DNA of 64,000 bases from Chloroflexota bacterium (GTDB taxonomy: Bacteria > Chloroflexota > Anaerolineae > Anaerolineales > Villigracilaceae): assembly GCA_019873655.1 (NCBI GenBank), contig JAIOAU010000001.1:209984-273983 (forward strand), given 5' to 3'. A program made the position numbers and the translations under genes. Of the stretch, positions 11,867 through 24,006 are shown one piece after another (position 1 is the first letter of the stretch; the number at the start of each line of letters is the position of its first letter). The notes beneath the pieces were generated by a model. The model made no database searches. It worked only from the letters and a program-made list of their open reading frames with translations, and was not told the DNA's origin.

Positions 11867-12806
11867 CGCGAGTCTGCGTAAGTATAACAGAACCTTGAGA
11901 TGTGAGGCGGGGATGGGGCTGTTTAGCGCCCGGCTGGAGAGAATGAGGCGCGGCGCTTTCCTCAATGGCCTGGACGCTCGGAGGCCGTCTGCAATCCCGG
12001 CTCCTTTGCCAACCAGTCGTGACATTTTTTATCAAAAAGTCCCTAATTCTTGGTGAAGAGCCCGTTTCCTTGAAGGAAACGGGCTCTTCCAGGGGACAGC
12101 CCCATGAGCAGGTGGTGTAGTTGCAAATGGGGTAGGAGCCGGGGCCGTTGGCCGGTGTAGCAGGGCAGTTTGGAGTGGGTTGACTGCCGCATCCGGGGCA
12201 GTTAGAAGAGGAGCATATGCAGGTATTACCAGATTTCTCACATTTGAGGCCGATATTACAGGAGCCGGAGCATTGATTATTATATAAGCCGCAAGGGCCG
12301 CTGGGTTTGATTGGGGGTTGGGTCGGGCTGGCGAGCGGGTCTGTTGGTTTTGGCGTGTCGGTTGGGGCGGGGGTGGGGGTGGGGGTTTTTATGGGTTTTG
12401 GAGCGCATTTATCAGTATTGATGGTGTCGCAATAGCCAGAACAGCATTGATAATCATGAGCACACATTTGTCCATTTGCTCTACATGACGGAGTAGGTGT
12501 ATTGGTCGGGGGACAGTCTCGACAAACTCCGCCAGAGCAGTTGATTTCAGAGCATCCACAAGTACAATACCAAGAGCAATAAGGATCAGGCGCGCAAAGA
12601 CTACCAGAACAACCACATGAACAGTTTTTTACAAAAATCCATGTACTGCCGTCACAATAATATTGTTTGCTATAACTACAACATGAACTTCCTTCAAGGT
12701 AGCATCTATCACCGCTTTTACAAGCAGCAAAAGAGGGTTTTGGAAAAGCAAGAGAGATAAAGGTTATAAAAGTTATAAAGGTTATAGCCAGCGCTTTTCT
12801 CCCCAT
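11547..12806 (-). CDS. Cys-rich secreted protein of unknown function; 3' end uncertain
   Basis: From ATG 12806 the first 25 or so residues form a signal peptide containing a tripled ITF unit encoded by a tandem AT-rich repeat. The mature part has over thirty cysteines in short CxxC/CC patterns, two Thr-Pro linkers (TNTPTPS; TPTPTPAPTDTPKPT) and no recognised fold, suggesting a disulfide-knotted surface protein. After CNYTTCSWGC the frame enters a 17-bp-arm palindrome (12055-12089) and then runs about 500 nt of non-homologous GC-rich sequence overlapping endonuclease V in another frame. The true protein probably ended near 12090 and lost its stop when the palindrome was inserted, or the frame is shifted. 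The region is distinctly AT-richer than its neighbours. Confidence 0.55.
   Translation of the reverse strand: MGRKALAITFITFITFISLAFPKPSFAACKSGDRCYLEGSSCCSYSKQYYCDGSTWIFVKNCSCGCSGSLCAPDPYCSWYCTCGCSEINCSGGVCRDCPPTNTPTPSCRANGQMCAHDYQCCSGYCDTINTDKCAPKPIKTPTPTPAPTDTPKPTDPLASPTQPPIKPSGPCGLYNNQCSGSCNIGLKCEKSGNTCICSSSNCPGCGSQPTPNCPATPANGPGSYPICNYTTCSWGCPLEEPVSFKETGSSPRIRDFLIKNVTTGWQRSRDCRRPPSVQAIEESAAPHSLQPGAKQPHPRLTSQGSVILTQTRDEISAPLESSSRRGRPSPERIARATRSRLGQKTRLAGRRSGCQRPRRDLRLRHRRPDLPRPRTGRGRRCRGSPDLSLHPRPAGLPRRPGRAGRLGETATPARLGPI
12055..12089. terminator. Strong palindrome, terminator-like
   Basis: GAAGAGCCCGTTTCCTT (12055-12071) and its exact complement (12073-12089) form a 17-bp-arm hairpin. On the minus strand a weak T-run (ACTTTTTG) follows about 20 nt later. 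It lies at the apparent end of the Cys-rich domain and is read in frame by that ORF. Confidence 0.6.
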
Positions 12807-12828
12807 AATCTTTAGTATAACAAAAAAT

Positions 12829-12897
12829 GCAAAATTCAAAATGCAATCCTGCCCTTCGCGAAGGGCGGGACAAAATGACAATGCAAAATGCAAAATT
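12829..12897. repeat. AT-rich imperfect repeat around a small hairpin
   Basis: Copies of AAATGCAAAATT and variants flank the hairpin CTGCCCTTCGCGAAGGGCGG in the gap between the Cys-rich protein gene and the lipoprotein gene at 12924-14264. No gene is visible here. Confidence 0.6.
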
Positions 12898-12923
12898 AGG
12901 AGGGAATAGGACTAATAAAAATC

Positions 12924-14264
12924 TTATGGATTAGTTGGCCATAATCTTTGAGTTGAAGCAGGAGTTATCAGCTGGAGCTCGGGAGGGAGAGGGTATCGCA
13001 TTCCTTGAGTTTCAAGAACCCTGGTGTCTGTGTCAAGCATATCTAGATATCCCAAGTTGCCGGAAATATTTGCCCAATCGTTTCCATTTCCATCATCAGT
13101 TGGTAAATCATGCGGATCATTCCCCGTGCTCAAGAGCTGGGCATAAATGGAATTGCGGGGAAGGATAACAGCTGGGCTGTTTGGATCGTCTGGATTAAGA
13201 TGAGGCCGGATAACAATATTTTCAGGGTCATTGGGGTCAAGGTTGGGGTTGGTGGCAAAAAGGACAAGGGTTGGAAAAACCGGATTGGTTCTTCGAAAAG
13301 CCAGTCTTAAGCCAGTATCAGAATAAAAAAGTTCTTCAGCATTTTGCGGCTGTCCTTCAATAGTGGCGTCAACACATATGTAAAAATTCCAATTACCCAG
13401 TTCTTCAGGGTCAGGGTTTTCTTGATTTTGAGGGTTGAAGGCGGCAACAACAGTAAACGGGTATCTTTGGCCGTTTATAATGATTTCGCCGCCAATATCC
13501 ATATATCTCATGGTCAGGCCGGCTAACTGCTGTTGGTTTCCGCCGTCATTGCCTTTGGCTTTGAGGCTGGCAATTCTTGTGCCGTCTGGAAGGATTTCAA
13601 AAAGCAGAGAGTTTCCGCCGAGGTTCTGCCAGTTTTGCCGGACAGCATCGGGGTCCATATGGAGGATGTCGGCAAGGCTTTCGCCTTTGTCCATCCGCTC
13701 AAGGATGTAGGAGAGAATAAAGCGGGTGGCATCCCCGGACTGGACGTCTTCGATGGTGAGGGTGGGGAGATTGTCAAGGGCTTCTTCGTTGAGCCGGGGG
13801 TTGTCGGTGTTGACGCCGGTGTAGAGTTCTTGAAAATTGGGGACAACGCGGAATTCGGCGGTGTCGGGGAGCCAGAGGAGGGTGACTTCCTGTCCGTTTT
13901 GGTCCAAAGCGCGGACGGTGTAGGGGGCGAGGGGGTTGTGGGCGCGCAGGTCGTCATTCGTAGAGAAGGTATCAGGAAGCAGGGCGAGTTCTACGGTCTC
14001 CCGTCCACCGTCCACGGTCTGCACCGCGGAGACGAGCCAGCGGCCGTTTTCGGGGTCGTAGCGGATGAGGCCGCGGGCGAAGGCGGGGTCAAATTCAGAA
14101 GGGTGAGGGAGTTCGGGGAGAGGGGTGGGAGTGGCAGTGGCAGTGTTCAGTGGGCGGTGTTCAGTGTTCAGTGGAACGGCGGTCTGCGGGCCGACGTCCG
14201 CGGTCTGTCCGCAGGCGGCGAGCAAGACGACAAAAAGGATGAGCAAGAGAAATGAACGGGGCAT
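12924..14264 (-). CDS. Lipoprotein of unknown function
   Basis: A 446-residue exported protein I do not recognise. A hydrophobic leader ends in lipobox LAAC (C18). Residues 25-55 are a Thr/Pro-rich low-complexity linker (VPLNTEHRPLNTATATPTP) whose DNA is an 8-bp-period repeat. The rest is soluble, with no transmembrane segment, rich in Asn and Asp. The 5' part is GC-rich like the genome while the last two thirds (about 12924-13700) are clearly AT-richer, hinting at mosaic origin. SD-like AGGAGAC precedes the ATG and a TATAAT lies at 14297-14302. It is adjacent to the Cys-rich protein gene; a shared surface role is possible but unproven. Confidence 0.7.
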   Translation of the reverse strand: MPRSFLLLILFVVLLAACGQTADVGPQTAVPLNTEHRPLNTATATPTPLPELPHPSEFDPAFARGLIRYDPENGRWLVSAVQTVDGGRETVELALLPDTFSTNDDLRAHNPLAPYTVRALDQNGQEVTLLWLPDTAEFRVVPNFQELYTGVNTDNPRLNEEALDNLPTLTIEDVQSGDATRFILSYILERMDKGESLADILHMDPDAVRQNWQNLGGNSLLFEILPDGTRIASLKAKGNDGGNQQQLAGLTMRYMDIGGEIIINGQRYPFTVVAAFNPQNQENPDPEELGNWNFYICVDATIEGQPQNAEELFYSDTGLRLAFRRTNPVFPTLVLFATNPNLDPNDPENIVIRPHLNPDDPNSPAVILPRNSIYAQLLSTGNDPHDLPTDDGNGNDWANISGNLGYLDMLDTDTRVLETQGMRYPLPPELQLITPASTQRLWPTNP

Positions 14265-14380: not shown

Positions 14381-15067
14381 TTAATTTTCTGCCATCGCTG
14401 TCGCCGGTTGCTGCGCCGGGGCAAAGCGGCGGTACAATCCCAGGCCAAGGCCTCCTAATATCAGCCCCGCGCCGATGACTGTCAGCGCCGTATGCCAGGC
14501 GTCGGCCCAGTTGACGCCGCCGATGGTGTGGGTGGGGGCCATCAGATAGGGGATGACCAGGGTCAGCAGGCCGGTCAGCGCCAGGGAGATGGCGGCGGCG
14601 TGTTTGCCGGTCTCTTTTTCGCCGGCGGGCTTCTCGTAGTTCACGCCCTGCCAGATGGTCGGCAGGCGGAACAGGAGGAAGACGATCAGGGTGAGGACGT
14701 TGGTGTAGAGGACCGCGTCCACGGGCATGGATGCGCCGCGCAGGGCGCGCGAGGCGAAGACGTGAATCAGGTTCAGGCCCGTCCCGAGGAGCAGGGCGAT
14801 CAGAGCGGCGCGGTAGGCGTCGCGGCGGCCGCGCACGAGCAGGACGACGGCGCGCACGCCCAGGATTCCGGCGGCGATTCCCACCAGGACGAACAGAATC
14901 CACAGCCACTGGAACGGTTGAATGGCGTCGAATTTGCCGCCCCAGCCGGTCGGGTTGAGGGCGACACAGGTCGTCCCGGCTCCGCCGAGCAGGGTGAAGG
15001 CGGCGGTCAGGCTCATCAGGACGATGCCAAGGATGCGAAGGGTTTTGGCCCACCAGGTGTGTCTCAT
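14381..15067 (-). CDS. Six- to seven-helix membrane protein of unknown function
   Basis: A 228-residue hydrophobic protein with about six transmembrane segments (roughly residues 10-32, 52-77, 86-106, 118-138, 158-178, 188-208). Two cytoplasmic-type loops contain RGRRDAYR and EKPAGEKETGK. Histidines lie in or near helices (LIHVFASRA, APTHTIGG, DAWHTAL). AAGGAGAA precedes the ATG. It is the last gene of the minus-strand run that starts at 21747 and includes CtaB, so a role in the same membrane process is plausible. No family is recognised. Confidence 0.7.
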   Translation of the reverse strand: MRHTWWAKTLRILGIVLMSLTAAFTLLGGAGTTCVALNPTGWGGKFDAIQPFQWLWILFVLVGIAAGILGVRAVVLLVRGRRDAYRAALIALLLGTGLNLIHVFASRALRGASMPVDAVLYTNVLTLIVFLLFRLPTIWQGVNYEKPAGEKETGKHAAAISLALTGLLTLVIPYLMAPTHTIGGVNWADAWHTALTVIGAGLILGGLGLGLYRRFAPAQQPATAMAEN

Positions 15068-15073
15068 ATCATT

Positions 15074-15182
15074 CTCCTTTTTTCAACACAAAGTGCTTTC
15101 AACACAAAGTGCACGAAGGGAACACGAAGGGCGCGAAGAATAAAATAAAATTTTGTGTCCCTTTGTGCCCGTTGTGTTTTTC
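15074..15182. repeat. Inverted array of CACGAAG/CACAAAG repeats
   Basis: AACACAAAGTGC and AACACGAAGGGCGCGAAG units are followed, after an AT spacer, by their rough complement TTTTGTGTCCCTTTGTGCCC. The gap can fold into a long imperfect hairpin between two minus-strand membrane-protein genes. The units belong to the same sequence family as the 51-bp repeat at 50932-51238. Confidence 0.7.
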
Positions 15183-15185
15183 TTT

Positions 15186-15791
15186 TTACGCCAGTGCGAA
15201 GCCGGCGACGAACGCGGCGGTCATCAGCAGGAGCAGGGCCGGCAGGATGCGCAGAATCGTCTCGCGCGGGACGATGGGGCGGCCGGCCTTCAGGAAGGAG
15301 AGCAACAGCCCGCCCAGGCCAATCAGCGCGCCGCCCAGGCCGACCAGCGCGAAGCCGGGGCGCGCCGCCCCCTGCGCGGCGAGTACGCTCGGCAGGAGGA
15401 AGATGACCATCCCCGCCACGCCGTGGACGACGGTCAGGACGATGACCGGCAGGCGGCCCTTGAGCGGCAGGGAGCGGGTGAGGAGGACCGCCAGGAATCC
15501 GCCCAACACGAAGAGCAGGTACGGGGTCCGCCAGGCGGCGAGGCGCTCCCAGACCAGCCCCAGCGAGAGGCTGAGCGGGATGACGGTCGAGACGATGACC
15601 ACGACTGGGCTTTCGAGCACGTCCAGGCCGAGGATGATGAGCAGCAGGCAGGCGACCAGCAGGACGCCGAATCCAATCGTGTAGGCCAGCACGGGGACGC
15701 GTTCCAGCCCTTCGATGCCGACCGCCACCTGCCAGGCGGCCAGCAGGGCGGCGAGGAGGAGGAAGAGGCGGAGGAGGGGGGAGGCTTTCAT
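15186..15791 (-). CDS. Multi-pass membrane protein, paralogue of the 19344-19961 product
   Basis: A 201-residue protein with six or so hydrophobic helices. From about residue 75 to the end it matches the product of 19344-19961: SLGLVWERL against SLGLVEQYF, HGVAGMVIFLLPS against HGAAGLVIFIGPF, and VGLGGALIGLGG against VGIGGLLIGLGG, with the same LTPLLLLMT-like last helix (LPALLLLMT). The conserved histidine in the HGxAGxVIF motif sits inside a helix and is the best candidate ligand. No ribosome-binding site is visible because the upstream gap is repeat DNA. Function unknown; both copies lie in the CtaB-containing cluster. Confidence 0.75.
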   Translation of the reverse strand: MKASPLLRLFLLLAALLAAWQVAVGIEGLERVPVLAYTIGFGVLLVACLLLIILGLDVLESPVVVIVSTVIPLSLSLGLVWERLAAWRTPYLLFVLGGFLAVLLTRSLPLKGRLPVIVLTVVHGVAGMVIFLLPSVLAAQGAARPGFALVGLGGALIGLGGLLLSFLKAGRPIVPRETILRILPALLLLMTAAFVAGFALA

Positions 15792-15793
15792 GG

Positions 15794-15848
15794 TGGACGG
15801 TGGACCGTGGACGGTGGACGGTCTACGGTCTACCGTCCACCGTCTATT
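15794..15848. repeat. Short tandem repeat with inverted end (GGTGGAC type)
   Basis: Repeated GGTGGAC/GGACCGT/GGTCTAC units end in CCGTCCACC, which is complementary to the beginning. It fills the whole gap between ctaB and the next membrane-protein gene. Confidence 0.7.
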
Positions 15849-15849
15849 G

Positions 15850-16692
15850 TCAAAGCGAAAGCAGAATCATCGAAGCCAGCATATACAGCGAGGCGTACTT
15901 GAACAGGCTGTAGTTGACCCGCTCGGAGGGGCGGAAGACGGTGGCGAATGAAAGCACCAGCAGCCCGGCGGAGAGGACGGCCATCAGGCGCAGGAAGCCG
16001 GCCTGGACGCCGATCATCACGCCCGCCACACCCATGCTGGCGGCGGCGATGATGGCCGAGAGGGCGATGACGGCCCGCGTCGTCTCGAAGCCGTAGGCGG
16101 AGGGGAATGTCGGGATGCGCGCCGACTGATAGTCGGCGAAGTAGCGCATCGAGAAGGTCAGGATGTGGGTCGGAATCCAGAACAGGACGGCCATGCTGAG
16201 CAGGACGCCGATGAGGTCAATCTGGCCGGTTGCCATCACCCGTCCGGCGAGGATGGGCATGCCGCCCGAAATCCCGCCCCAGACGATGCTCCAGCAGGTG
16301 CGGCGCTTGAGCCAGATGGTGTACACGATCACGTCGAAGAACAGCCCGGCGAAGACGACCAGCCCATAGAGCGGACTCATCGCCACAGCCCAGCCGACGC
16401 CGAGGGCGGAGAGAATCAGTCCCAGGCGCAGGGCTTCCGCGGGCGAGACGCGGCCGTCGGCCAGCGGACGGTGGTGGGTGCGGTTCATCACGGCGTCAAT
16501 GTCGCGGTCGTACCACATGTTGAGCACGGTCGAGCCGCTGATGGCCAGGAAGAGGCTGCCCGCCACGCCGAGCAAGATCAGGCCCGAAGGCGCGGTGTGG
16601 GCGCTGAGATACCCCGCCAGCCCGGTCGCCAGCAGGAGGCCGGTCTGGAGGGTTTTGATGAGGGGGAGGTAGAGGCGGAGTTTTTTGAGCAT
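15850..16692 (-). CDS. ctaB: Heme O synthase (protoheme IX farnesyltransferase)
   Basis: A 280-residue UbiA-superfamily membrane enzyme that adds a farnesyl group to heme B to give heme O for heme-copper oxidases. The first Asp-rich motif NMWYDRDID is at residues 58-66, followed by MNRTHHRPLADGR; the second conserved segment is DVIVYTIWLKRRTCWSIVWGGISGG, split here between two helices. Around nine transmembrane helices are expected. The frame is open upstream through a 15-bp tandem repeat, but MLKKLRLYLPLIKTLQ at 16692 is the natural start. The neighbouring genes are uncharacterised membrane proteins rather than standard cox genes, which is unusual. Confidence 0.93.
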   Translation of the reverse strand: MLKKLRLYLPLIKTLQTGLLLATGLAGYLSAHTAPSGLILLGVAGSLFLAISGSTVLNMWYDRDIDAVMNRTHHRPLADGRVSPAEALRLGLILSALGVGWAVAMSPLYGLVVFAGLFFDVIVYTIWLKRRTCWSIVWGGISGGMPILAGRVMATGQIDLIGVLLSMAVLFWIPTHILTFSMRYFADYQSARIPTFPSAYGFETTRAVIALSAIIAAASMGVAGVMIGVQAGFLRLMAVLSAGLLVLSFATVFRPSERVNYSLFKYASLYMLASMILLSL

Positions 16693-16711
16693 GGTTTTTC
16701 TGTGAGGGAGG

Positions 16712-16801
16712 CAGGTATTGGGTAAACAGGTATCAGGTATACAGGTATCGGGTACACAGGTATCAGGTATACAGGTGTCAGGTATACAGGTAACCAAGTA
16801 T
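16712..16801. repeat. 15-bp tandem repeat, six units
   Basis: Units starting CAGGT occur exactly every 15 nt (16712, 16727, 16742, 16757, 16772, 16787), consensus CAGGTATCAGGTATA. On the minus strand the array keeps an open frame that would read as CIPDT pentapeptides, continuous with ctaB. It is followed by CTGCCTCCCTG, complementary to the sequence just before the array. Confidence 0.9.
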
Positions 16802-16823
16802 ACCTGCCTCCCTGTTTTCTTGT

Positions 16824-17756
16824 CTACTTGTCGCGAGCGCAGCGAAATCCCACCGCCGGGCCGTAGTACATCGGCGGGGCGGAGTTGCGCACCCAGACGC
16901 GCAGGTCCATGTCGTAGGTGTTGCGCGAGCCGCCGTGCATCAGCCGGTCGCTGAAGCCTTCCTGCGGCTGGACGTCGCCCACCCACTGCCAGACGTTGCC
17001 AGCCATGTCGTAAAGGCCGTAGGGCGAGGCGGCGTTGATGGTTTGAAACCCATCGTACGAGCGGCCGTTGTAGAAGCCGACCGGCGTGGTCAGCGAGCCG
17101 TAGGAGGACATGTCCTCGAAGGGGTCGCGGCTGGCGTAGAAGTTGGCGTGCTGACGGGTGATTTCGTCGCCCCAGGGGTAGGCGCGGGCGTCGTCGGAGC
17201 CGCGGGCGGCCTTCTCCCATTCGAGTTCGGTCGGCAGACGCCAGCCGTAGGAACCGCAATAGGCCCAGGCCCCGAACCAGGAGACGTTCGTCATCGGGTG
17301 ATTCTCCCAGCCGGGCTTGACGGCGAAGGTCTGCCCGTCGAAGGTGAAGCGCGAGGCCGGGTCGGCGAGCGGGACGAGCAGGTAGTTGCCCGCGTCGATG
17401 CGGATTTCGTGCTTCTTGCCGTGGAAGGGGTCGCCGGGGTAGAAGGCGACGGCGTAGTCGCCCTCGATGAGCACGCTTCCGTCGGCCAGGGCGGCGTTGA
17501 GGAAGTCCACATATTGGGCGACGGTGACTGGCGTGACCATGATCTCGTAGTCGTAGGGAATCTCTTCGAGTTCGGCTTGCTGCCCGTGATAGAAGGGGCC
17601 GGCCGGGACGCGCGCCCAGGCCGCGGGGTCCACGCCCGTGTCGTAGACCGGAATGGCCGGGTCGAGGTCCACGGGGGCGCAGGCGGCCAGGAGGACGAGG
17701 AGCAGGCCCAGGGTCTGTACTGAGCGAAGTCGAAGTGTCAGGACGATGCGCTTCAT
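16824..17756 (-). CDS. SUMF1/FGE-like lipoprotein, probably non-catalytic
   Basis: A 310-residue exported protein with lipobox LLAAC (C26) and a full formylglycine-generating-enzyme-sulfatase-modifying-factor fold: VPAGPFYHGQ, PVTVAQYVDFLN, HPMTNVSWFGAWAYC, RLPTELEWEKAARG, YPWGDE, YGLYDMAGNVWQWVGD, and a final VGFRCARDK. The copper-binding active-site cysteine pair of true FGE, expected in the RGGSW-CR region, is absent: here it is HGGSRNTYDMDLRVWVRNS. It is therefore likely a binding protein. The N-terminal LRSVQT is encoded by a CTTCGCTCAGTACAG insert. The ATG overlaps the stop of the gene upstream (ATGA), so translation is coupled to the polytopic protein at 17753-19222. Confidence 0.82.
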   Translation of the reverse strand: MKRIVLTLRLRSVQTLGLLLVLLAACAPVDLDPAIPVYDTGVDPAAWARVPAGPFYHGQQAELEEIPYDYEIMVTPVTVAQYVDFLNAALADGSVLIEGDYAVAFYPGDPFHGKKHEIRIDAGNYLLVPLADPASRFTFDGQTFAVKPGWENHPMTNVSWFGAWAYCGSYGWRLPTELEWEKAARGSDDARAYPWGDEITRQHANFYASRDPFEDMSSYGSLTTPVGFYNGRSYDGFQTINAASPYGLYDMAGNVWQWVGDVQPQEGFSDRLMHGGSRNTYDMDLRVWVRNSAPPMYYGPAVGFRCARDK

Positions 17757-19222
17757 TTCGACACCTCCTCGGCGAGTTCTTGGGCGGATTCTTCCGTCCA
17801 GCGGCCTTTCTTCTTGAACAGGTCGGCCAGCCGCCAGATCATGACCATCGCCAGGACGACCAGCAGCATGCCCAGGCCGAAGTCCATCAAAATCATGACG
17901 GTGTTGACCAGCGGCTGCTGGGAGGCTTCGTCAATGAACAGGCGCTTGGTCTCGAAGATGGTGACGGCGGCAAAGGCCAGGTCGGAGAGGATGATGATGG
18001 CCCAGCCGTATAGGCGGCGGAGTTTGCCCTTCAGGCCGATGATGTCGCCGTAGTAGAGCAGGATGATGGTGGCGATGATGGCCGAGAGGACGTGCCAGTG
18101 GCCGGTCAGTTCGATGCGCTCCTCGCGGTGCGGCCACAGACGGAAGATTTCGTCCAGGCGCACGGCGTAGAAGATGCCGATGCCGCTGACGGTGAAGTTC
18201 ATGAAGACCATCTGCCAGAGCGGGCCGAAGCGCAGCGGGTCGCGCAGGAGCGCCTTGAACTTCTGCCAGCCGGAGGGCTTTTCGATTCCGGCCACGCCCT
18301 CGCGGATGAGTTTGTCCCAGCCGAAGATGACCAGCATCAGCGCGCCGAGCATGGCGGGCGTCGCGCCGACGTAGATGATCATGTGGGCGATCGGCTCCAG
18401 CGGCGTCACCACGCCCCAGACGCCCAGGTTCAAGATGATCGTGCCGAAGATGATGAGCGGCATGGCGATCTTGTGCAGGATGCCCTTGAAACCCAGCCAG
18501 CGGCCAATGATGAGCGTAATCATGATGGCAATCAGCGCCAGCATGATGTGCAGGTGGCCGATGACCGAGTATTCCATCGTGGTCTTTTCGGGCAGGCGGA
18601 TGATGTTCTCGGCCAGGAAGACCTCGAAGCCGTTGCCGAAGTACGAGCCGGGGACGGCCCCGAAGAGCGCCGAGATGACCGTGGTCAGCGCGGTGGCGAA
18701 GAAGGCGGCGCGCTCCAGGTCCACGCGGCCCTTGCCATCTTTCCCACCGGGGAGCAGGTAATCTTTCTCCCAGGGCCAGAGGGCGATGGTCAGCAGGACG
18801 CCGGCGAAGAAGATGAGCGCCAGGCCGGTGATGTAGAGGCCGTGGAAGACCCACTCATGCCCCCAGTAGGCGAACAGCAGGCCGAAGATCATCGCCAGCA
18901 GGTAGCCGACCGTGATGAGGACGCGCACGGCTTTGCGGTAAAAGGCGCGCATCCCCAGCAGGCTGGTGATCATGTAGACCTCGATCGCGACGACGGCCAT
19001 GGCAATCGAGTGGTACAGGATGATGATGCGCCCCTCGCGCTCGGCCGGGTGCAAATCCATGCCCAGGGCGCGGACGATGACCTCGCGCACGCCCATCTCG
19101 GCCATCGGGCCGGAGAGCATGCCGAAGAGCGCCGTCGTCACGGCAATCATCGCAACCGCGACCAGGATGAGGCCTTTGGTCGTGCCGAAGAGGTATCTGA
19201 AGCGTTCTTTGATGAAATGCAT
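17753..19222 (-). CDS. Histidine-rich polytopic membrane protein, candidate heme protein
   Basis: A 489-residue protein with about twelve transmembrane helices. The start at 19222 is preferred because GGAGAG precedes it; an upstream ATG at 19234 overlaps that site. Histidines cluster in or at helix ends: YHSIAM, YWGHEWVFHG, two GHxH motifs (VIGHLHIMLAL and LTGHWHVLSA) and IAHMIIYVG. GHxH motifs of this kind coordinate heme in cbb3/NOR-type oxidase subunits, but no His-His pair for CuB is seen. The helix count, His pattern and proximity to ctaB make a heme-bearing electron-transfer subunit a reasonable guess. I do not recognise a named family. It is translationally coupled to the SUMF1-like lipoprotein. 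Confidence 0.72.
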   Translation of the reverse strand: MHFIKERFRYLFGTTKGLILVAVAMIAVTTALFGMLSGPMAEMGVREVIVRALGMDLHPAEREGRIIILYHSIAMAVVAIEVYMITSLLGMRAFYRKAVRVLITVGYLLAMIFGLLFAYWGHEWVFHGLYITGLALIFFAGVLLTIALWPWEKDYLLPGGKDGKGRVDLERAAFFATALTTVISALFGAVPGSYFGNGFEVFLAENIIRLPEKTTMEYSVIGHLHIMLALIAIMITLIIGRWLGFKGILHKIAMPLIIFGTIILNLGVWGVVTPLEPIAHMIIYVGATPAMLGALMLVIFGWDKLIREGVAGIEKPSGWQKFKALLRDPLRFGPLWQMVFMNFTVSGIGIFYAVRLDEIFRLWPHREERIELTGHWHVLSAIIATIILLYYGDIIGLKGKLRRLYGWAIIILSDLAFAAVTIFETKRLFIDEASQQPLVNTVMILMDFGLGMLLVVLAMVMIWRLADLFKKKGRWTEESAQELAEEVSK

Positions 19223-19239
19223 AACACTCTCCATGTTTT

Positions 19240-19343
19240 GACGTTGGAACGTTTGAAGGTTGGAACGTTGGAAAGTTGGCGTTTATGCCCAACGTTCCGA
19301 CCTCTCAACTTGCCGACTTGCAACATGCAAACTTGCCAACGTC
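19240..19343. repeat. Imperfect GTTGGAACGTT repeat with inverted half
   Basis: Repeats of the form GTTGGAACGTTTGAAG and GTTGGAAAGTTGG run from about 19245 to 19278 and are followed by complementary CAACGTTCCGACC and CAACTTGCCGACTTGCAA units. The gap could form a long imperfect stem. Similar sequence is embedded in the helicase gene at about 6550-6610. Confidence 0.75.
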
Positions 19344-19961
19344 CTATTTCCGAATATCCTTCACGAACCCAAACGTAAACGCCAGCGTCATGAGCAGCAG
19401 AAGCGGGGTCAGGATGGTCATGACGAACTGCGGGCTGAAGAAGAGCAACTGCGAGCCGAGCGAGAGGAAGGCCAGCGCAATCCCGCCCAGGCCGATGAGC
19501 AGTCCGCCGATTCCGACCCACCAGAAGCCTTTCGCCGCGCCTTTGGCGATGAACGGCCCGATGAAGATGACCAGCCCCGCCGCGCCGTGGAAGAGCGGCA
19601 CGGCAATCTTGCGCAGCAGGTCGATCCCGCCGAAACTGGCGGCCGCAATCGCCAGGAAGCCCACCAGCGCGAACCACTTGAAGGCCTTCTTCCACTGCGG
19701 GAAGTACTGCTCCACCAGGCCCATCGAGATGCCCAGCGGGATGAGCGAGGCCACGGTCAGCACGGCCGGCTTGCCCAGGATGCCCAGCCCCAGGAAGATG
19801 AGCAGCAGCCCGGAGACCAGCAGGACGAGGAAGCCCATCATGTAATAGACATCGTAGAGGGCTTTGCCCCTGCTCCAGCGCGTGTAGAAGCGCCAGAGCA
19901 GATAGATGGCCACGAGGCCGGTCAAGAGAAGAAACAGATTATCGAGGGTGAACAGGTTCAT
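19344..19961 (-). CDS. Multi-pass membrane protein, paralogue of the 15186-15791 product
   Basis: A 205-residue protein with six or so helices and an AAGGAG ribosome-binding site. It shares the last two thirds with the 15186-15791 product, including HGAAGLVIFIGPF and GIGGLLIGLGGIALAF. N-terminal MNLFTLDNLFLLLTGLVAIYLLWRF is a membrane helix followed by TRWSRGKALYD. It is the first gene after a Crp/Fnr-type palindrome at 20064-20079, about 100 nt upstream of the start, and is followed by the His-rich protein. No known family is recognised. Confidence 0.75.
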   Translation of the reverse strand: MNLFTLDNLFLLLTGLVAIYLLWRFYTRWSRGKALYDVYYMMGFLVLLVSGLLLIFLGLGILGKPAVLTVASLIPLGISMGLVEQYFPQWKKAFKWFALVGFLAIAAASFGGIDLLRKIAVPLFHGAAGLVIFIGPFIAKGAAKGFWWVGIGGLLIGLGGIALAFLSLGSQLLFFSPQFVMTILTPLLLLMTLAFTFGFVKDIRK

Positions 19962-20063
19962 GACAATCTCCTTTTCTGGAGGGGAAAGACCTCCATAGAT
20001 TCAAACCCGCACGCCTTGCGCGGGGTATCTATGTGAATTATGGCACATGAACCGGTTCGATTC

Positions 20064-20079
20064 TGTGATAAAGGTCACA
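20064..20079. promoter_or_regulatory. Crp/Fnr-type palindrome TGTGATAAAGGTCACA
   Basis: TGTGA-N6-TCACA, the half-site spacing bound by Crp-like regulators. It lies in the 138-nt gap upstream of the minus-strand gene starting at 19961. Inferred to be bound by the Crp/Fnr protein encoded at 21996-22673. Confidence 0.6.
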
Positions 20080-20099
20080 TTCCGTTTCTTCCTGGACCC

Positions 20100-20888
20100 T
20101 CAGCCGGCATCCTGTTTCTCGAGCAGGGCGCGCCCTGCGGGCAGGAGCAGATAAATCAACAGGCCTGCGCCGAGGAGCGGGGCGGGCAGGAACATCGAGA
20201 AGCGCCCCAGCCGCAGCACGTCGCTGACCCCGAGCGGAAAGCCGCCCAGCATGGACATCAGCGCCGCGAAGACGCCCAGCGGCAGCGCCCATTCTTTGCG
20301 CTTCAGCGTCGCGAAGATGAACACCGCCCAGGCCGCCGCGCCCCACCAGTTGACCATCTGCGTCACGGCATAGACGCCGTGCAGGAACGGGTCGGGGACG
20401 GTCTGATAGCGCGAAATGCTGGCGACGCCGTCCATGAAGGTCAGCACGTAGGCCAAACCGGCGACGAAGGTCAGGGCGATGCGCTTCCAGGCCGCGCCGC
20501 CGACAATCAACATGCCGAACCACAGGACGGCGGCCAGGCCGAAGGTCGGGGCGGTGGGCGAGGGCAGGCCCACGCTGGCGGGCGGGATGATAGGGAAGAA
20601 GGCGGTCAGCATGTAAATGGTCGCCGCGACCGTTCCCCAGAACCAGGCCCAGGGCTGGCGGCGGGCGAATCCGTAGGCCGAGACGCCCATCAGCGCCGCC
20701 CCGGCCAGGGTCAGCCAGCCCAGGATGGCAAAGACAATCTGGACGGTGATGCCCTCGTCGGGCCGCCCCTCGGCCACCTTGCCGTCGATCGTCGGCTGGT
20801 AGATGCTGGCAATCTGGTAGGCCAGCAGCAGACCGGTCAGCAGGCCGAGCAGGGCCAGCGCCAGGCCGAGTGTTCGGTTGCCTTTCAT
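20100..20888 (-). CDS. Membrane protein of unknown function
   Basis: A 262-residue protein with seven or eight hydrophobic segments, starting MKGNRTLGLALALLGLLTG. Features shared with its neighbour at 20899-21747 include an RRQPWAWFWG segment (compare ARKAWGWRLAL) followed by a long helix, and a QPVQW/TQMVNWW-like helix, so the two may be distant relatives. Only 10 nt separate it from that gene, so they form an operon. No catalytic or cofactor motif is obvious. Position in the Crp/Fnr-flanked cluster suggests a role in the same membrane process. Confidence 0.7.
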   Translation of the reverse strand: MKGNRTLGLALALLGLLTGLLLAYQIASIYQPTIDGKVAEGRPDEGITVQIVFAILGWLTLAGAALMGVSAYGFARRQPWAWFWGTVAATIYMLTAFFPIIPPASVGLPSPTAPTFGLAAVLWFGMLIVGGAAWKRIALTFVAGLAYVLTFMDGVASISRYQTVPDPFLHGVYAVTQMVNWWGAAAWAVFIFATLKRKEWALPLGVFAALMSMLGGFPLGVSDVLRLGRFSMFLPAPLLGAGLLIYLLLPAGRALLEKQDAG

Positions 20889-20898
20889 GGTTGCCTCC

Positions 20899-21747
20899 TC
20901 ACGCGTTTGGGTCGGTCAGCGCCGCCTTGAACTTCGGGAACAGCAGCGTAAACAAAAGCCCGATGATGACCGGCAGGCCGTAGGAATAATCCCACGAAGT
21001 GGATTTCGCGATGACCAGGCGGATGATTTGCATCGGCACGTCTATCGTCACCAGCGAGACGACCGCCAGCAGCGCCAGCCGCCAGCCCCAGGCTTTGCGC
21101 GCCGCCAGCAGGTAGATGGCGACGAAGAGCAGGATGACGCAAATCCACTGAACGGGCTGCGACCAGGCCAGCACCCACCAGCCGATGCCGTCGTAGAGCG
21201 GCTTGTCGGGGCGGGTCAGCAGGGTGCGCAGGTTGCCGGTCCCGACGATGAAGGCGTGCGTGGTCAACATGCCGGCGAAGGTCAGCGCCAGGAACTGCCC
21301 CCACTTCAGCCACTTGTCCACCTTGCGCAGCAGGATGAGCGACCAGAAGAAGACCAGGCCGACGAAGGAGACGGCCATCGGCAGGGGGAAGCCGTCCACG
21401 AAGGAGACGTAGGGCATGAACATGAACATCCCGCCCGCCGAGGGGAAGGCCGAAGCCAGCAGGGCGGCCGGGAACGTCCACTCCTTGCCTTCGGCAATCG
21501 GCTTTGCCAGCAGCAGCAGGGCGATTCCGCCGATGAAAATCAGGCCGCGGTAGAGCGGAAAGGCGTACGAGAAAATCAGGATGCCGCTGGCGTAAGCCGG
21601 CTTTTCTTGCGAAACGACCACCAGCGCCGAGATGACCCGTTCCAGCGAGGTCTGGATGATGAACGGGGCGACGGCGACCATGAACAGGCCGACGATGACC
21701 GCCAGCGCGGCCAACAGCAGACGGATGTTGCGAGGCGTGTTTTCCAT
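20899..21747 (-). CDS. Membrane protein of unknown function, first gene of the minus-strand cluster
   Basis: A 282-residue protein; MENTPRNIRLLLAALAV at 21747 is preceded by AGGAGAAG. About eight transmembrane helices. Notable segments are FPSAGGMFMFMPYVSFVDGFPLP, TTHAFIVGTGNLRTLLT with a histidine in a helix, and WAWSQPVQW-like aromatic residues. It is the promoter-proximal gene of the minus-strand run down to 14381 and faces the divergent Crp/Fnr gene, with two palindromes (21920-21935, 21952-21967) in between. Family not recognised. Confidence 0.7.
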   Translation of the reverse strand: MENTPRNIRLLLAALAVIVGLFMVAVAPFIIQTSLERVISALVVVSQEKPAYASGILIFSYAFPLYRGLIFIGGIALLLLAKPIAEGKEWTFPAALLASAFPSAGGMFMFMPYVSFVDGFPLPMAVSFVGLVFFWSLILLRKVDKWLKWGQFLALTFAGMLTTHAFIVGTGNLRTLLTRPDKPLYDGIGWWVLAWSQPVQWICVILLFVAIYLLAARKAWGWRLALLAVVSLVTIDVPMQIIRLVIAKSTSWDYSYGLPVIIGLLFTLLFPKFKAALTDPNA

Positions 21748-21919
21748 ACACTTCTCCTGGAGGTGGAATGTTGTATGCAACAGGACTTACGCAAAATGAT
21801 GTCCATTTTTCACCGTCAAGTCGCCAACACATTCGAGAGTTCGCCAGGGATGCCTGGCGTCTCGATACACCCGTTGGCGTTCTCTGGGTCTTGGCGGTTC
21901 GCTATGTAAAGCCCTGTTA

Positions 21920-21935
21920 TGTGATATGTATCACA
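21920..21935. promoter_or_regulatory. Crp/Fnr-type palindrome TGTGATATGTATCACA
   Basis: TGTGA-N6-TCACA with the two central bases of each half also symmetric. It is in the divergent gap between the membrane-protein operon (start 21747) and the Crp/Fnr gene (start 21996), closer to the latter. Confidence 0.65.
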
Positions 21936-21951
21936 AGAAGAGTCAGAAGTC

Positions 21952-21967
21952 TTTGACTTAAGTCAAA
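21952..21967. promoter_or_regulatory. Perfect 16-bp palindrome TTTGACTTAAGTCAAA
   Basis: TTGAC-N4-GTCAA, the layout of Fnr/Dnr-type sites. Its centre lies about 36 nt upstream of the GTG start of the Crp/Fnr gene, which has a TATAAT box at 21984-21989, so it is placed for autoregulation. Confidence 0.65.
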
Positions 21968-21983
21968 TTTCCCTCAAAGCGAA

Positions 21984-21989
21984 TATAAT
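21984..21989 (+). promoter_or_regulatory. -10 box of the Crp/Fnr gene (leaderless)
   Basis: Perfect TATAAT 6 nt before the GTG at 21996. The mRNA should begin at or next to the start codon. Confidence 0.5.
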
Positions 21990-21995
21990 CGGGGC

Positions 21996-22673
21996 GTGAC
22001 GAACGAACTGCTCGAACTGCTGGCGGCGCATCCGGTCTTTTCTTCCCTCAGCGAAGCGGACCGTTCGCGGCTGGCCGACCTGGCCGTTCCGCGGCGCTGC
22101 GCCGCCGAGGAGTTCCTCGTCCTCGCCGGGGACTGCTGGCCGTATCTGTTCCTGGTTGTCGAGGGGTGTTTGCTGGCGCTCAAAGAGTCGAGTGAAGGGC
22201 GCAGTCTCATTGTCGCCGACGTGGAGGCCGGGGAGGTCTTCTGGGGGCTGGCCTTTTTCGAGCCGGGGATGCCGAATCCGGTCAGTTTGCAATCTCGCGG
22301 CGCGACTCGCCTGTATCTTTGGATGGCCGAAGATTTGCAGCCTCTCCTTCTCGAGAATGGCCGCCTGATGTGGGAACTGGCGCGGGCGATGGTGCGGCGC
22401 ATGCTGCGCGCCAGCGAGGTCATCGAGGGGTTGGCCTTCCAGCCGATTGCCAGCCGCCTGGCGCGTTTGCTCCTCGACCAGATTCCCGCCGACCGGCCGT
22501 CGGTCCCGCGCTCGCTCACCCTGGACGAACTGGCCGCCCGCCTCGGCACCAGCCGCGAGGTCGTTTGCCGGGCGCTCTACCGTTTCGCCGGCGATGGGCT
22601 GATCAACGTCACCCGCACCGAGTTCACGCTGACCGACCGAGACGGCTTGTCCCGTCTGGTGGAGGGAGACTGA
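21996..22673 (+). CDS. Crp/Fnr family transcriptional regulator
   Basis: A 225-residue regulator with an N-terminal cyclic-nucleotide-binding-like beta-roll (about residues 10-120), a dimerisation helix and a C-terminal HTH (about 165-215). The recognition helix TSREVVCRALYRF keeps the Arg-Glu...Arg pattern that contacts TGTGA half-sites in Crp, which agrees with the palindromes in this locus. The N-terminus lacks the cysteine cluster of Fnr, so it should not bind a 4Fe-4S cluster that way; heme, nitric oxide or nucleotide sensing are open. Divergent from the membrane-protein operon and 34 nt upstream of the flavoprotein gene. Confidence 0.9.
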   Translation: MTNELLELLAAHPVFSSLSEADRSRLADLAVPRRCAAEEFLVLAGDCWPYLFLVVEGCLLALKESSEGRSLIVADVEAGEVFWGLAFFEPGMPNPVSLQSRGATRLYLWMAEDLQPLLLENGRLMWELARAMVRRMLRASEVIEGLAFQPIASRLARLLLDQIPADRPSVPRSLTLDELAARLGTSREVVCRALYRFAGDGLINVTRTEFTLTDRDGLSRLVEGD

Positions 22674-22707
22674 AGCGATTCACTTTTTTGATTCGGAGGA
22701 ATGAAAC

Positions 22708-24006
22708 ATGGCCCAAATCGTTGTCATCGGCGCAGGGATCGCCGGATTGGCGGCAGCCTATCGGTTGCAGAAGGCCGGTCATTCGGTTGTCGTGCTCGAG
22801 GCCGCCGACCACGTCGGCGGACGCATGATCACCATCGAGTGGAACGGCTGGAGAATCGACCCGGGCGCCAAGTTCGTCACCGGCGGGGATACCTACCTGC
22901 TGGAAATGGTCGCCGATCTCGGCTTACAAGATCAACTCTATCCGATGTACACCGAGGGCGTCCCCACGGTGATTTTGCGCGACGGCAAGCAGCACGCAGT
23001 CGATTTTGTCTCGATTGGCTCTTACCTGCGCTGGACGGGCGTCTCTCTGCCGGCGCGCCTGGCGATGTTCAAGTTGATCCCCTATTTTCTCAAGACGGCC
23101 TTGCAGGTCAAGAATAAGTACCGCATGGACCAGGTCCCCGGCCCGGATGGCGAGACGCTGGAGGAGTTCTTCTGCCGGCGCATCAGCGCCGAAATGTACG
23201 AGTATTGGGCCTTCCCGACCTTCGAGACCTATTGCAGTTACGGCCCAGATGACCTCTCGCGCAAGGCGTTTCTGTCTTTGTTGATCAGTTATCTCAACAC
23301 GAAAAGTCTTGGCCTGCGCGCCGGGATCGGGACGTTGCCCGAGGCCATTGCCGCCCGTTTGGACGTTCGCTTGAGCGCGGCGGCAAAGCGGCTGGAATTC
23401 GCCGCCGACGGCGTGCGCGTCGTCTATGATCAGGCGGGTAAGCAGGCGGACCTGACCGCCGACCTGGCGGTGATCGCCGTCCCCGGCGACCAGGCCCTGG
23501 ACCTGCTGCCGGCGCCGCGTCCGGCCTGGCAGGCCTTCTTCCCGACCGTTCATTACAGCGAGACGGCCTCGATTTTCCCGGAAGTCGAAGGCGATTTCGA
23601 CCCGGGCGGGCCTGGTGTGATGATTCCGCGCGCCGAGAATATGTACGTTTGCTCGATTGGGATTGACCAAAAGCGGCCCGGTCAGACGCTCCTGCTGGTG
23701 GATACTTCTGTGGCTCAATATGACCCCAATGAGCCAGATGAAGTTATCATTCGCAAGAGCAAGGCGGATGTGGAAAAAATCTATCCCGAACTCGCCGGGC
23801 GGCTGGGCGAAACGCTGGTCTATCGCTGGTCGCGCAAAGTGCCGACCTTCCGCCCCGGCTATCTGGAGGCGCTGGCCCGTTTCCGGGCGGATATGCAGGA
23901 GCACCCGGTCTACTTCTGCGGCGATTACTTTGCCGGTCCGAGCACGGGCGGGGCGCTCTACAGCGGCTGGGAATGCGCCGACCGCATCCTGGGCCGGCTG
24001 GGGTGA
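22708..24006 (+). CDS. Protoporphyrinogen-oxidase-like FAD amine oxidase
   Basis: A 432-residue flavoprotein. The Rossmann motif GAGIAG is at residues 8-13, followed by the acidic LEAADHVGGRM segment; the C-terminal FAD contact CGDYFAGPSTGGALYSG is typical of HemY/NAD(P)-binding Rossmann-like amine oxidases. The nearest well-known activity is protoporphyrinogen IX oxidation, one step of heme biosynthesis, but phytoene-desaturase-like or unrelated amine oxidation cannot be excluded. GGAGGAA precedes the ATG. It follows the Crp/Fnr gene by 34 nt and may be co-transcribed. A heme role would match ctaB in the divergent operon. Confidence 0.8.
   Translation: MAQIVVIGAGIAGLAAAYRLQKAGHSVVVLEAADHVGGRMITIEWNGWRIDPGAKFVTGGDTYLLEMVADLGLQDQLYPMYTEGVPTVILRDGKQHAVDFVSIGSYLRWTGVSLPARLAMFKLIPYFLKTALQVKNKYRMDQVPGPDGETLEEFFCRRISAEMYEYWAFPTFETYCSYGPDDLSRKAFLSLLISYLNTKSLGLRAGIGTLPEAIAARLDVRLSAAAKRLEFAADGVRVVYDQAGKQADLTADLAVIAVPGDQALDLLPAPRPAWQAFFPTVHYSETASIFPEVEGDFDPGGPGVMIPRAENMYVCSIGIDQKRPGQTLLLVDTSVAQYDPNEPDEVIIRKSKADVEKIYPELAGRLGETLVYRWSRKVPTFRPGYLEALARFRADMQEHPVYFCGDYFAGPSTGGALYSGWECADRILGRLG

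What the first reader, a model, noticed from the sequence alone, without database searches (positions are those of the whole stretch)
14381..24006. Crp/Fnr-controlled heme-linked membrane cluster of unknown function
Eight minus-strand genes in a row encode three unassigned membrane-protein types, a paralogous pair, a His-rich 12-helix protein, a SUMF1-like lipoprotein and CtaB; divergent are a Crp/Fnr regulator and a protoporphyrinogen-oxidase-like flavoprotein. Three palindromes of Crp/Fnr type sit in the two main control gaps. No cytochrome oxidase, nitrite or NO reductase subunit of standard type is present, yet heme farnesylation and possible heme synthesis are. This may be an undescribed membrane electron-transfer or gas-responding system. 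I see the genes and sites; the function is inferred.
Basis: partly seen in the sequence, partly recalled or inferred. Interest (0 to 1): 0.78.

Follow-up and report, generated by a model that had tools for sequence, protein, structure and literature searches.

The report
Hidden oxidase-like protein for nitric oxide
A conserved gene cluster in Anaerolineae bacteria encodes a membrane protein that sequence searches do not recognise but whose predicted shape is that of cytochrome oxidases and nitric oxide reductases; a gene for making heme O travels with it, and its control site is shared with nitrite-reduction genes, so it probably handles nitric oxide or nitrite.

Summary
The cluster is real and conserved. 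The His-rich 12-helix protein (17753-19234, minus) has no Pfam, NCBIfam or PDB sequence match, but its AlphaFold model (pTM 0.85) matches heme-copper oxidase (HCO) subunit I: VIA-align Z 22, all 50 listed rows HCO or NO reductase entries. Seven His are invariant, including TM2 His and TM10 HxH as in HCOs; the TM7 His-His pair (CuB/FeB) is absent. TM6-7 and TM10-11 are an internal repeat (E 3.5e-10). Heme O synthase follows in 70 of 72 loci; 8 of 8 HCO-less genomes with this protein (host included) carry it. A Crp-type site at a predicted -41.5 controls the operon; the exact palindrome occurs four times in the genome: twice here, at nrfHA and at Rrf2-cydA. Presence tracks nitrite reductases NirS/NrfA (49 of 75 versus 10 of 75); nirS precedes it in two genomes. 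Best reading: an HCO-fold heme-O complex of nitrite/NO metabolism, perhaps a new NO-consuming enzyme; the chemistry is unproven. The neighbouring flavoprotein is not linked (0 of 80 loci).

The parts
17753..19234 (-). His493: 12-TM protein with HCO subunit I fold; invariant H75, H131, H227, H229, H284, H379, H381; core of the system
   Evidence: no sequence-family match
15850..16692 (-). CtaB, heme O synthase (protoheme IX farnesyltransferase)
   Evidence: TIGR01473 above cut-off; downstream of His493 in 70 of 72 loci
16824..17756 (-). FGE/SUMF1-domain lipoprotein, presumably outside the membrane; invariant H116, H153, C167, C306
   Evidence: PF03781; 75 of 75 loci; residues 38 of 38
19344..19961 (-). 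C205: 7-helix membrane protein, first gene after the operator, paralogue of B201, one invariant His (H125)
   Evidence: C205/B201-type gene upstream in 44 of 75 loci
15186..15791 (-). B201: paralogue of C205, one invariant His (H123)
   Evidence: 56 of 66 loci
14381..15067 (-). A228: membrane protein with invariant C34 and H180 (31 of 31) and H102 (30 of 31), distant relative of D262
   Evidence: 48 of 62 loci
20100..20888 (-). D262: membrane protein, frequent upstream neighbour
   Evidence: 39 of 60 loci
20899..21747 (-). E293: membrane protein, occasional neighbour
   Evidence: 9 loci (window included) with a match of E <= 1e-10 and enough upstream sequence, of 63 searched; start ATG at 21747 read
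20064..20079 (-). Crp-type operator TGTGACCTTTATCACA of the C205-His493 operon, centred 41.5 bp upstream of the predicted start
20037..20042 (-). predicted -10 hexamer CATAAT, 37 bp from the start of the operator
   Evidence: a -10-like hexamer at exactly 37 in 18 of 29 orthologous sites against 0.38 expected per position
21920..21935 (.). Crp-type palindrome TGTGATATGTATCACA between E293 and the Crp/Fnr gene
21953..21966 (.). FNR/HcpR-type palindrome TTGACTTAAGTCAA between E293 and the Crp/Fnr gene
   Evidence: position read
21996..22673 (+). Crp/Fnr-family regulator; recognition helix ..SREVVCRAL.. resembles that of E. coli CRP (comparison recalled)
   Evidence: PF13545, PF00027; >=45% identical Crp within 6.5 kb in 16 of 56 loci
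22708..24006 (+). amine-oxidase-family flavoprotein; neighbour, judged NOT part of the system
   Evidence: 0 of 80 loci

Best explanation
The cluster encodes a membrane heme complex built round a highly divergent heme-copper-oxidase-fold protein (His493). Its own CtaB makes heme O for it; C205, B201 and A228 are small membrane subunits and the SUMF1-domain lipoprotein is a part on the outer side. A Crp/Fnr-family activator bound at -41.5 switches it on together with nitrite-respiration genes. Most likely job: to take electrons from the quinol pool or an outer donor and consume the nitric oxide that arises from nitrite (NO-reductase-like or detoxifying), at a heme/metal site that differs from known ones because the TM7 His-His ligand pair is missing. 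Shown by computation: predicted fold, invariant His, internal repeat, gene linkage, promoter architecture, shared operators, co-occurrence with NirS/NrfA. Inferred: heme O binding, subunit assembly, the electron donor, activation, NO as substrate.
For: Fold: pTM 0.85, Foldseek probability 1.00 for ba3, cbb3 and NOR entries, VIA-align Z 18.7-22.0 for all 50 listed rows, all HCO/NOR entries. TM2 His and TM10 HxH invariant. CtaB above cut-off in 8 of 8 HCO-less genomes with His493, host included. Operator in 30 of 38 loci, at a predicted -41.5 with a conserved -10. Genome-wide the exact operator occurs 4 times in the host: this cluster twice, nrfHA, Rrf2-cydA; it precedes nrfHA again in 5 of 12 relatives. 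With NirS or NrfA His493 is in 49 of 75, without in 10 of 75; CydA much weaker. nirS-C205-His493-SUMF-CtaB order in L064 and L065. Near His493: gNOR-like gene in 5 loci, DUF438-hemerythrin in 6, DUF1858 in 9, NnrS/COX1-like in 8 of 119 distinct loci.
Against: No TM7 His-His pair, so the canonical CuB/FeB site is absent. No significant profile match to ordinary HCOs (hhalign E 0.057 and 0.0092) and no COX1 match for any of 30 members. Foldseek E only 5e-3; 195-214 and 364-377 have pLDDT under 50. No subunit II with CuA or cytochrome c among the cluster genes. Ten genomes with His493 have neither NirS nor NrfA, and 24 of 62 NrfA genomes lack His493. All seven NirS genomes without His493 also show only A/B-band COX1 matches or small fragments, so His493 is not the only answer to a missing NO reductase. 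Three of 12 further His493 genomes (G024, G044, G109) have no exact operator palindrome.
Confidence: 0.45

Rival explanations
1. It is an electron conduit, not an NO enzyme: an HCO-fold di-heme protein that passes quinol electrons across the membrane to nitrite reductases (NirS, NrfHA), like a cytochrome b/NapC replacement.
For: No CuB/FeB His pair; extra invariant His (H227/H229) could make the second heme bis-His; nirS in the same gene row; shared operator with nrfHA.
Against: NrfHA already brings its own NapC-type protein (PF03264); heme O farnesylation and NO-linked neighbours (DUF438-hemerythrin, DUF1858, gNOR-like) fit NO chemistry better.
Confidence: 0.25
2. It is a protective or assembly/sensing heme protein like NnrS, binding NO or metal without turning it over.
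For: [quoted passage not shown] the neighbouring c19 protein is weakly NnrS-like.
Against: No NnrS match for any of 30 His493 members; the c19 gene, not His493, is the NnrS-like one.
Confidence: 0.13
3. It is a cryptic oxygen reductase for low oxygen.
For: HCO fold; heme O synthase; shared operator with Rrf2-cydA; Crp/Fnr-type control.
Against: No TM7 His pair and no TM6 HPxVY motif; association with CydA is weak (odds ratio 2.9, 2.0 within the family) against 12.2 for nitrite reductases.
Confidence: 0.1

Closest known systems
Heme-copper oxidase / NO reductase superfamily, subunit I (COX1, PF00115; cbb3 CcoN, ba3, cNOR)
   Same: 12-helix fold (Z 22.0 to 8smr_E of the bc1-cbb3 supercomplex, rmsd 4.3, 402 aligned); TM2 His, TM6 His, TM10 HxH (ligand roles recalled); genetic link to heme O synthase.
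   Different: No COX1 profile match; no TM7 His-His pair; HxH also on TM6; extra invariant His on TM4 and TM8; strong TM6-7/TM10-11 repeat that the canonical set tested here does not show; different partner genes.
NnrS (PF05940)
   Same: Multi-helix His-rich membrane protein in an NO-linked, Crp/Fnr-type regulon (NnrS side recalled and PMC1274295).
   Different: No PF05940 match.
HcpR regulons of nitrogen-oxide metabolism
   Same: Both operator types here, TGTGA-N6-TCACA and TTGAC-N4-GTCAA, match the cores of the two HcpR consensus types wTGTGAnnnnnnTCACAw and wyTTGACnnnnGTCAArw (PMC1274295, passages).
   Different: Regulator orthology not tested; Crp-type sites also serve other family members; the targets here are nrfHA, Rrf2-cydA and the His493 cluster; hcp was not looked for.
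Formylglycine-generating enzyme / SUMF1, GldK, EgtB-type FGE domains
   Same: FGE-sulfatase domain (PF03781).
   Different: Two invariant Cys (C167, C306) besides the lipobox Cys (36 of 38); NCBIfam matches all far below cut-off; likely not an FGE.

Membership tests
Heme-copper oxidase superfamily | 12-TM subunit I fold | tested here: met
   (predicted model)
Heme-copper oxidase superfamily | sequence match to COX1 profile | tested here: not met
   (0 of 30 members); hhalign E 0.057
Heme-copper oxidase superfamily | low-spin heme ligands: His on TM2 and second His of TM10 HxH | tested here: met
   H75 and H381 invariant; by helix number only, pocket geometry not seen
Heme-copper oxidase superfamily | high-spin heme ligand: first His of TM10 HxH | tested here: met
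   H379 invariant; by helix number only
Heme-copper oxidase superfamily | CuB/FeB ligands: TM6 His plus TM7 His-His pair | tested here: not met
   TM6 H227/H229 present, no His-His pair; only the single H284 at the start of TM8 is invariant there
Heme-copper oxidase superfamily | heme groups bound at these sites | not testable with these tools
   no coordinates or ligands returned
NO reductase (cNOR/qNOR/eNOR/gNOR) | characteristic active-site residue of each NOR type near the TM6 His (E, Q, N or D) | tested here: inconclusive
   TM6 reads GHLHIMLALIA; residue list in PMC8756737 Table A4 (passage); alignment to NORs not secure
NO reductase (cNOR/qNOR/eNOR/gNOR) | reduction of NO to N2O | not testable with these tools
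   needs biochemistry
NnrS | PF05940 match | tested here: not met
   window protein, 0 of 30 members; no genome of 63 has a match over cut-off
Heme O synthase (CtaB) | TIGR01473 above cut-off | tested here: met
   221.2 against 210.3 bits
Crp/Fnr class II promoter | palindrome centred at -41.5 with -10 hexamer | tested here: met
   18 of 29 sites at exact spacing; the start site itself is predicted, not measured
FGE (SUMF1) | active-site Cys pair near the C-terminus (recalled) | tested here: not met
   one Cys in the C-terminal part, C306

The most novel reading that the evidence does not exclude
A branch of the heme-copper oxidase superfamily invisible to sequence searches, with part of its threefold internal repeat still readable, forms a new class of NO-metabolising enzyme with a non-canonical metal/heme site, and supplies the NO reductase that many NirS-bearing Anaerolineae appear to lack.
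Probability: 0.3. Interest if true: 0.92.

Novelty: new variant of a known kind. Interest (0 to 1): 0.75.

Why it matters
If right, genome surveys miss a respiratory enzyme family in a common bacterial class of sediments, sludge and groundwater, and NO/N2O budgets inferred from marker genes are incomplete. Of 26 genomes with NirS and His493, only 6 have a COX1 match outside the A- and B-type E-value bands (five in the eNOR-like band, one untyped). The visible TM6-7/TM10-11 repeat also offers a new point of comparison for the origin of the threefold HCO fold. The protein occurs in a cultivated species, Thermanaerothrix daxensis (L097), whose genome paper lists an A-family HCO, bd oxidase, NirS and NrfA but names no NO reductase (PMC4653793, whole text), so it can be tested.

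Tried and rejected
Flavoprotein as part of the system: rejected, 0 of 80 loci. Mobile-element origin: no match in the plasmid or phage collections. NnrS identity: not met. Homology to canonical HCO by profile: not significant (E 0.057 against the COX1 set from relatives, and that alignment is out of register with TM10; E 0.0092 over 140 columns against three gNOR-like sequences). Pfam scan of 30 His493 members gave only weak unrelated matches (best DUF5654 E 0.002 in one member, DUF3169 E 0.0068 in eight). C205 fold: only generic 7-helix matches, Z up to 14.1, no conclusion. The first internal repeat (TM1-4) against the others is weak: E 0.0021 to 0.017 for the pairs tested against shuffles, which reach the observed score in 0 to 4 of 60. 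The idea that His493 stands in wherever NirS lacks a NO reductase: weakened, since the seven NirS genomes without His493 also lack one by COX1 band. Rex as regulator of the palindrome: set aside because the inner bases are Y...R as in Crp sites (consensus recalled). FNR-type oxygen sensing by the regulator: no conserved Cys cluster (C35, C47, C58 kept in 1-2 of 9). A farnesyltransferase near nirS in Anaerolinea thermolimosa, listed in PMC8756737, sits among SURF1, SCO and oxidase subunits, so it is not this cluster (passage).

Literature: ten searches. In the titles and abstract beginnings listed (2 to 12 per search; searches matched 21,241 and 2,508 papers, of which 10 each were shown) I saw no description of this protein or cluster. 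Only open-licence PMC papers are held and no preprints. Murali et al. and Hemp and Gennis on NOR families are recalled, not read. PMC8756737, PMC1274295 and PMC11748557 were seen as passages, PMC4653793 in full.
Full report
WHAT IS THERE. The window carries eight minus-strand genes at 14381-21747 and a divergent Crp/Fnr regulator at 21996-22673. CtaB (TIGR01473 above cut-off), the FGE/SUMF1-domain lipoprotein (PF03781) and the regulator fall in known families; the other six, including the 493-residue His-rich protein (His493), have no Pfam or NCBIfam match over a cut-off (the nearest is A228 to NMN_transporter, 20.5 against 27.3 bits). His493 has no Pfam match at E <= 1 and no PDB sequence match at E <= 10.

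CONSERVATION. His493 was found in 61 of 150 relatives (two of these are a 28-residue fragment and a marginal hit, dropped later), in 12 of 301 genomes drawn from the phylum and in 55 of 298 drawn from the class. Identity runs from 83% down to about 33%. Over 80 named loci, each gene counted only where the flank is long enough: SUMF 75 of 75, CtaB 70 of 72, B201 type 56 of 66, A228 48 of 62, C205 type 44 of 75, D262 39 of 60, a >=45% identical Crp 16 of 56, the flavoprotein 0 of 80. These 80 are the best-scoring of 291 loci. A distant clade shows His493-CtaB (L162, L163, L165) or, as far as the flanks reach, His493 without the other window genes. In G005 the His493 gene and the first part of the SUMF gene are missing while CtaB-B201-A228 remain: a decayed cluster.

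HIS493 IS AN HCO-FOLD PROTEIN. Its model (38 sequences, mean pLDDT 80.3, pTM 0.85) has twelve long helices. Foldseek against the PDB ranks Thermus ba3 oxidase first (E 5e-3, probability 1.00, TM 0.59/0.54), with cbb3 and NO reductases in the top 21. VIA-align gives Z 22.0 to chain 8smr_E of a bc1-cbb3 supercomplex (rmsd 4.3, 402 aligned), and all 50 listed rows are HCO or NOR entries, Z 18.7 or more; the tool's note gives a typical best Z of 14 for mostly helical models without a clear match. By sequence the link is below detection: no COX1 match for any of 30 members, hhalign E 0.057 and 0.0092. The relation therefore rests on the predicted fold.

INVARIANT HISTIDINES. Seven His are identical in 39 of 39 sequences and in all 30 of a set that includes the distant clade: H75 (TM2), H131 (TM4), H227 and H229 (TM6), H284 (start of TM8), H379 and H381 (TM10). 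HCOs have TM2 His and the second TM10 His on the low-spin heme, the first TM10 His on the high-spin heme, and one TM6 plus two TM7 His on CuB (recalled). Here the TM7 pair is missing and TM6 has HxH instead. A canonical CuB/FeB site is thus not met, and I do not file the protein as a standard oxidase or NO reductase.

INTERNAL REPEAT. Segment TM6-7 (200-278) against TM10-11 (356-434) aligns over 64 columns with E 3.5e-10, score 52.8; 60 controls shuffled in blocks of seven columns reach at most 28.6 and the reversed segment scores 11.5. The GHxH motifs and the following xxKG motifs match. TM1-4 against TM5-8 aligns over 132 columns with H75 opposite H229 and H131 opposite H284, but the score is weak (E 0.0043; 2 of 60 shuffles reach it). 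In a canonical COX1 set windows placed in the same way show a TM2/TM10 repeat (E 1.2e-5) but none for TM6/TM10 (E 0.13). So His493 shows part of the threefold architecture of the HCO fold in its own way.

HEME O. The known client of CtaB's product is the HCO superfamily (recalled). The host genome (99.8% complete) has no COX1 match at E <= 0.001 and one CtaB above cut-off, the one in this cluster. Of 63 genomes, 14 have no COX1 match; 8 of these (host included) have His493 and 8 of 8 have CtaB above cut-off. Of the 6 without His493, one (G005) is the decayed cluster, one (G106) has a CtaB piece at a contig end, four have only weak matches of 19 to 43 bits. This ties heme O to His493.

CONTROL. 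TGTGA-N6-TCACA (>=9 of 10, or an FNR-type site) lies within 300 bp upstream of C205 in 30 of 38 loci (1.2 expected); the 38 include some loci where the best C205 match is really B201. It is also upstream of His493 itself in 21 of 63 loci (1.95 expected), among them the distant L162, L163, L165. A TATAAT-like hexamer (>=5 of 6) starts exactly 37 bp from the operator start in 18 of 29 sites, 0.38 expected per position, which puts the operator at -41.5, the class II activator position, if the hexamer is the -10. In the whole 3.04-Mb genome TGTGAYNNNNRTCACA occurs four times (control pattern 0): the C205 promoter, the E293/Crp gap, upstream of nrfHA (NapC/NrfH-type PF03264 and NrfA PF02335), and upstream of an Rrf2 regulator plus cydA (PF01654). 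In 12 further genomes, all with His493, 9 have 29 such palindromes in all and 3 have none (control pattern: 4 palindromes in 3 of the 12). Of the 29, 8 are at His493 clusters; of 20 others fetched, 5 precede nrfHA, 1 precedes Rrf2-cydA, 1 precedes an Fe-S protein gene (L250), and 13 lie in or near other genes (one of them inside a molybdoenzyme gene, L258); 1 was not fetched. The nrfHA promoters share the operator/-10 spacing (36-37 bp in six genomes, read by eye). The two operator types in the window match the cores of those published for HcpR, a Crp/Fnr-type regulator of nitrogen-oxide metabolism (PMC1274295, passages); regulator orthology was not tested.

NITRITE AND NO. In 150 relatives His493 occurs in 26 of 33 genomes with NirS and 33 of 117 without (odds ratio 9.5, p 2e-7), in 38 of 62 with NrfA and 21 of 88 without (odds ratio 5.1), in 49 of 75 with either and 10 of 75 with neither (odds ratio 12.2, p 3e-11); for CydA 41 of 81 and 18 of 69 (odds ratio 2.9). 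Within the host family the NirS link holds (20 of 22 against 25 of 68) and the CydA link fades (p 0.09). Shared ancestry inflates these p-values. In two genomes nirS is the gene before C205-His493-SUMF-CtaB (L064, L065). Over 119 distinct loci the genes within about 9 kb include a gNOR-like COX1 protein in 5 (in L152 directly upstream, with a gene of weak cupredoxin match, E 0.014; TM6 reads DMVADGN, and gNOR has Asp per PMC8756737 Table A4), DUF438-hemerythrin in 6, DUF1858 in 9, an NnrS/COX1-like protein in 8, and in L151 a flavodiiron-type protein. Of 26 genomes with NirS and His493, 3 have no COX1 match longer than about 250 residues, 11 only A-band matches, 12 another band; I read the E 1e-90 band as B-type oxygen reductase (HPLVY, 5 loci read) and the E 1e-60 band as eNOR-like (HPAQQ, 1 locus read), the latter in 5 genomes, and G137 has one untyped match. 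But the 7 NirS genomes without His493 show no NOR band either, so this does not single out His493.

MECHANISM. Best reading: a quinol- or cytochrome-fed HCO-fold heme complex that consumes NO in nitrite-reducing anaerobes. Rivals: an electron conduit to nitrite reductases, an NnrS-like protector, a cryptic oxygen reductase. Fold, linkage and operator are well supported by computation; substrate and chemistry are inference.

NOVELTY. In the listings of ten text searches I saw no description of the protein or cluster (listings only, often a part of the matches). The T. daxensis genome paper lists the organism's respiratory enzymes without it (PMC4653793, whole text), although the cluster is there (L097). 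I call it a new variant of a known kind: HCO fold, different ligand set, new partners, new physiological setting.

Noticed in passing
L277:1071-1938 (also L278, L285, L287, L288): Tandem pairs of related small membrane proteins (mostly 133-150 aa) with weak COX1 matches and motifs like HLFMFGW..QLIFG..YWMFPR; such matches lie within 4 kb of nirS in G133, G045, G056 and G047. They look like single four-helix arcs of the HCO fold.
   Followed up: partly
L048:6110-7327: 405-aa membrane protein with weak matches to both NnrS and COX1 (its family against COX1: hhalign E 2.5e-5), close to a DUF1858 gene and the His493 cluster; relatives near His493 in 8 distinct loci.
   Followed up: partly
L152:10316-12379: gNOR-like COX1 protein with Asp in TM6 and a small protein of weak cupredoxin match without any Cys, directly upstream of a distant His493 homologue.
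   Followed up: partly
L142: A His493 locus labelled Candidatus Neomarinimicrobiota (62% identity): transfer between phyla or a binning error.
   Followed up: no
12001-14000: Lower-GC stretch (0.486 against 0.63-0.64 on either side) that overlaps a 446-aa lipoprotein gene (12924-14264) found in 0 of 80 related loci.
   Followed up: no
16712-16806: Short direct repeats (GGTATACAGGTATC-like) between the CtaB and SUMF genes, seen by eye.
   Followed up: no
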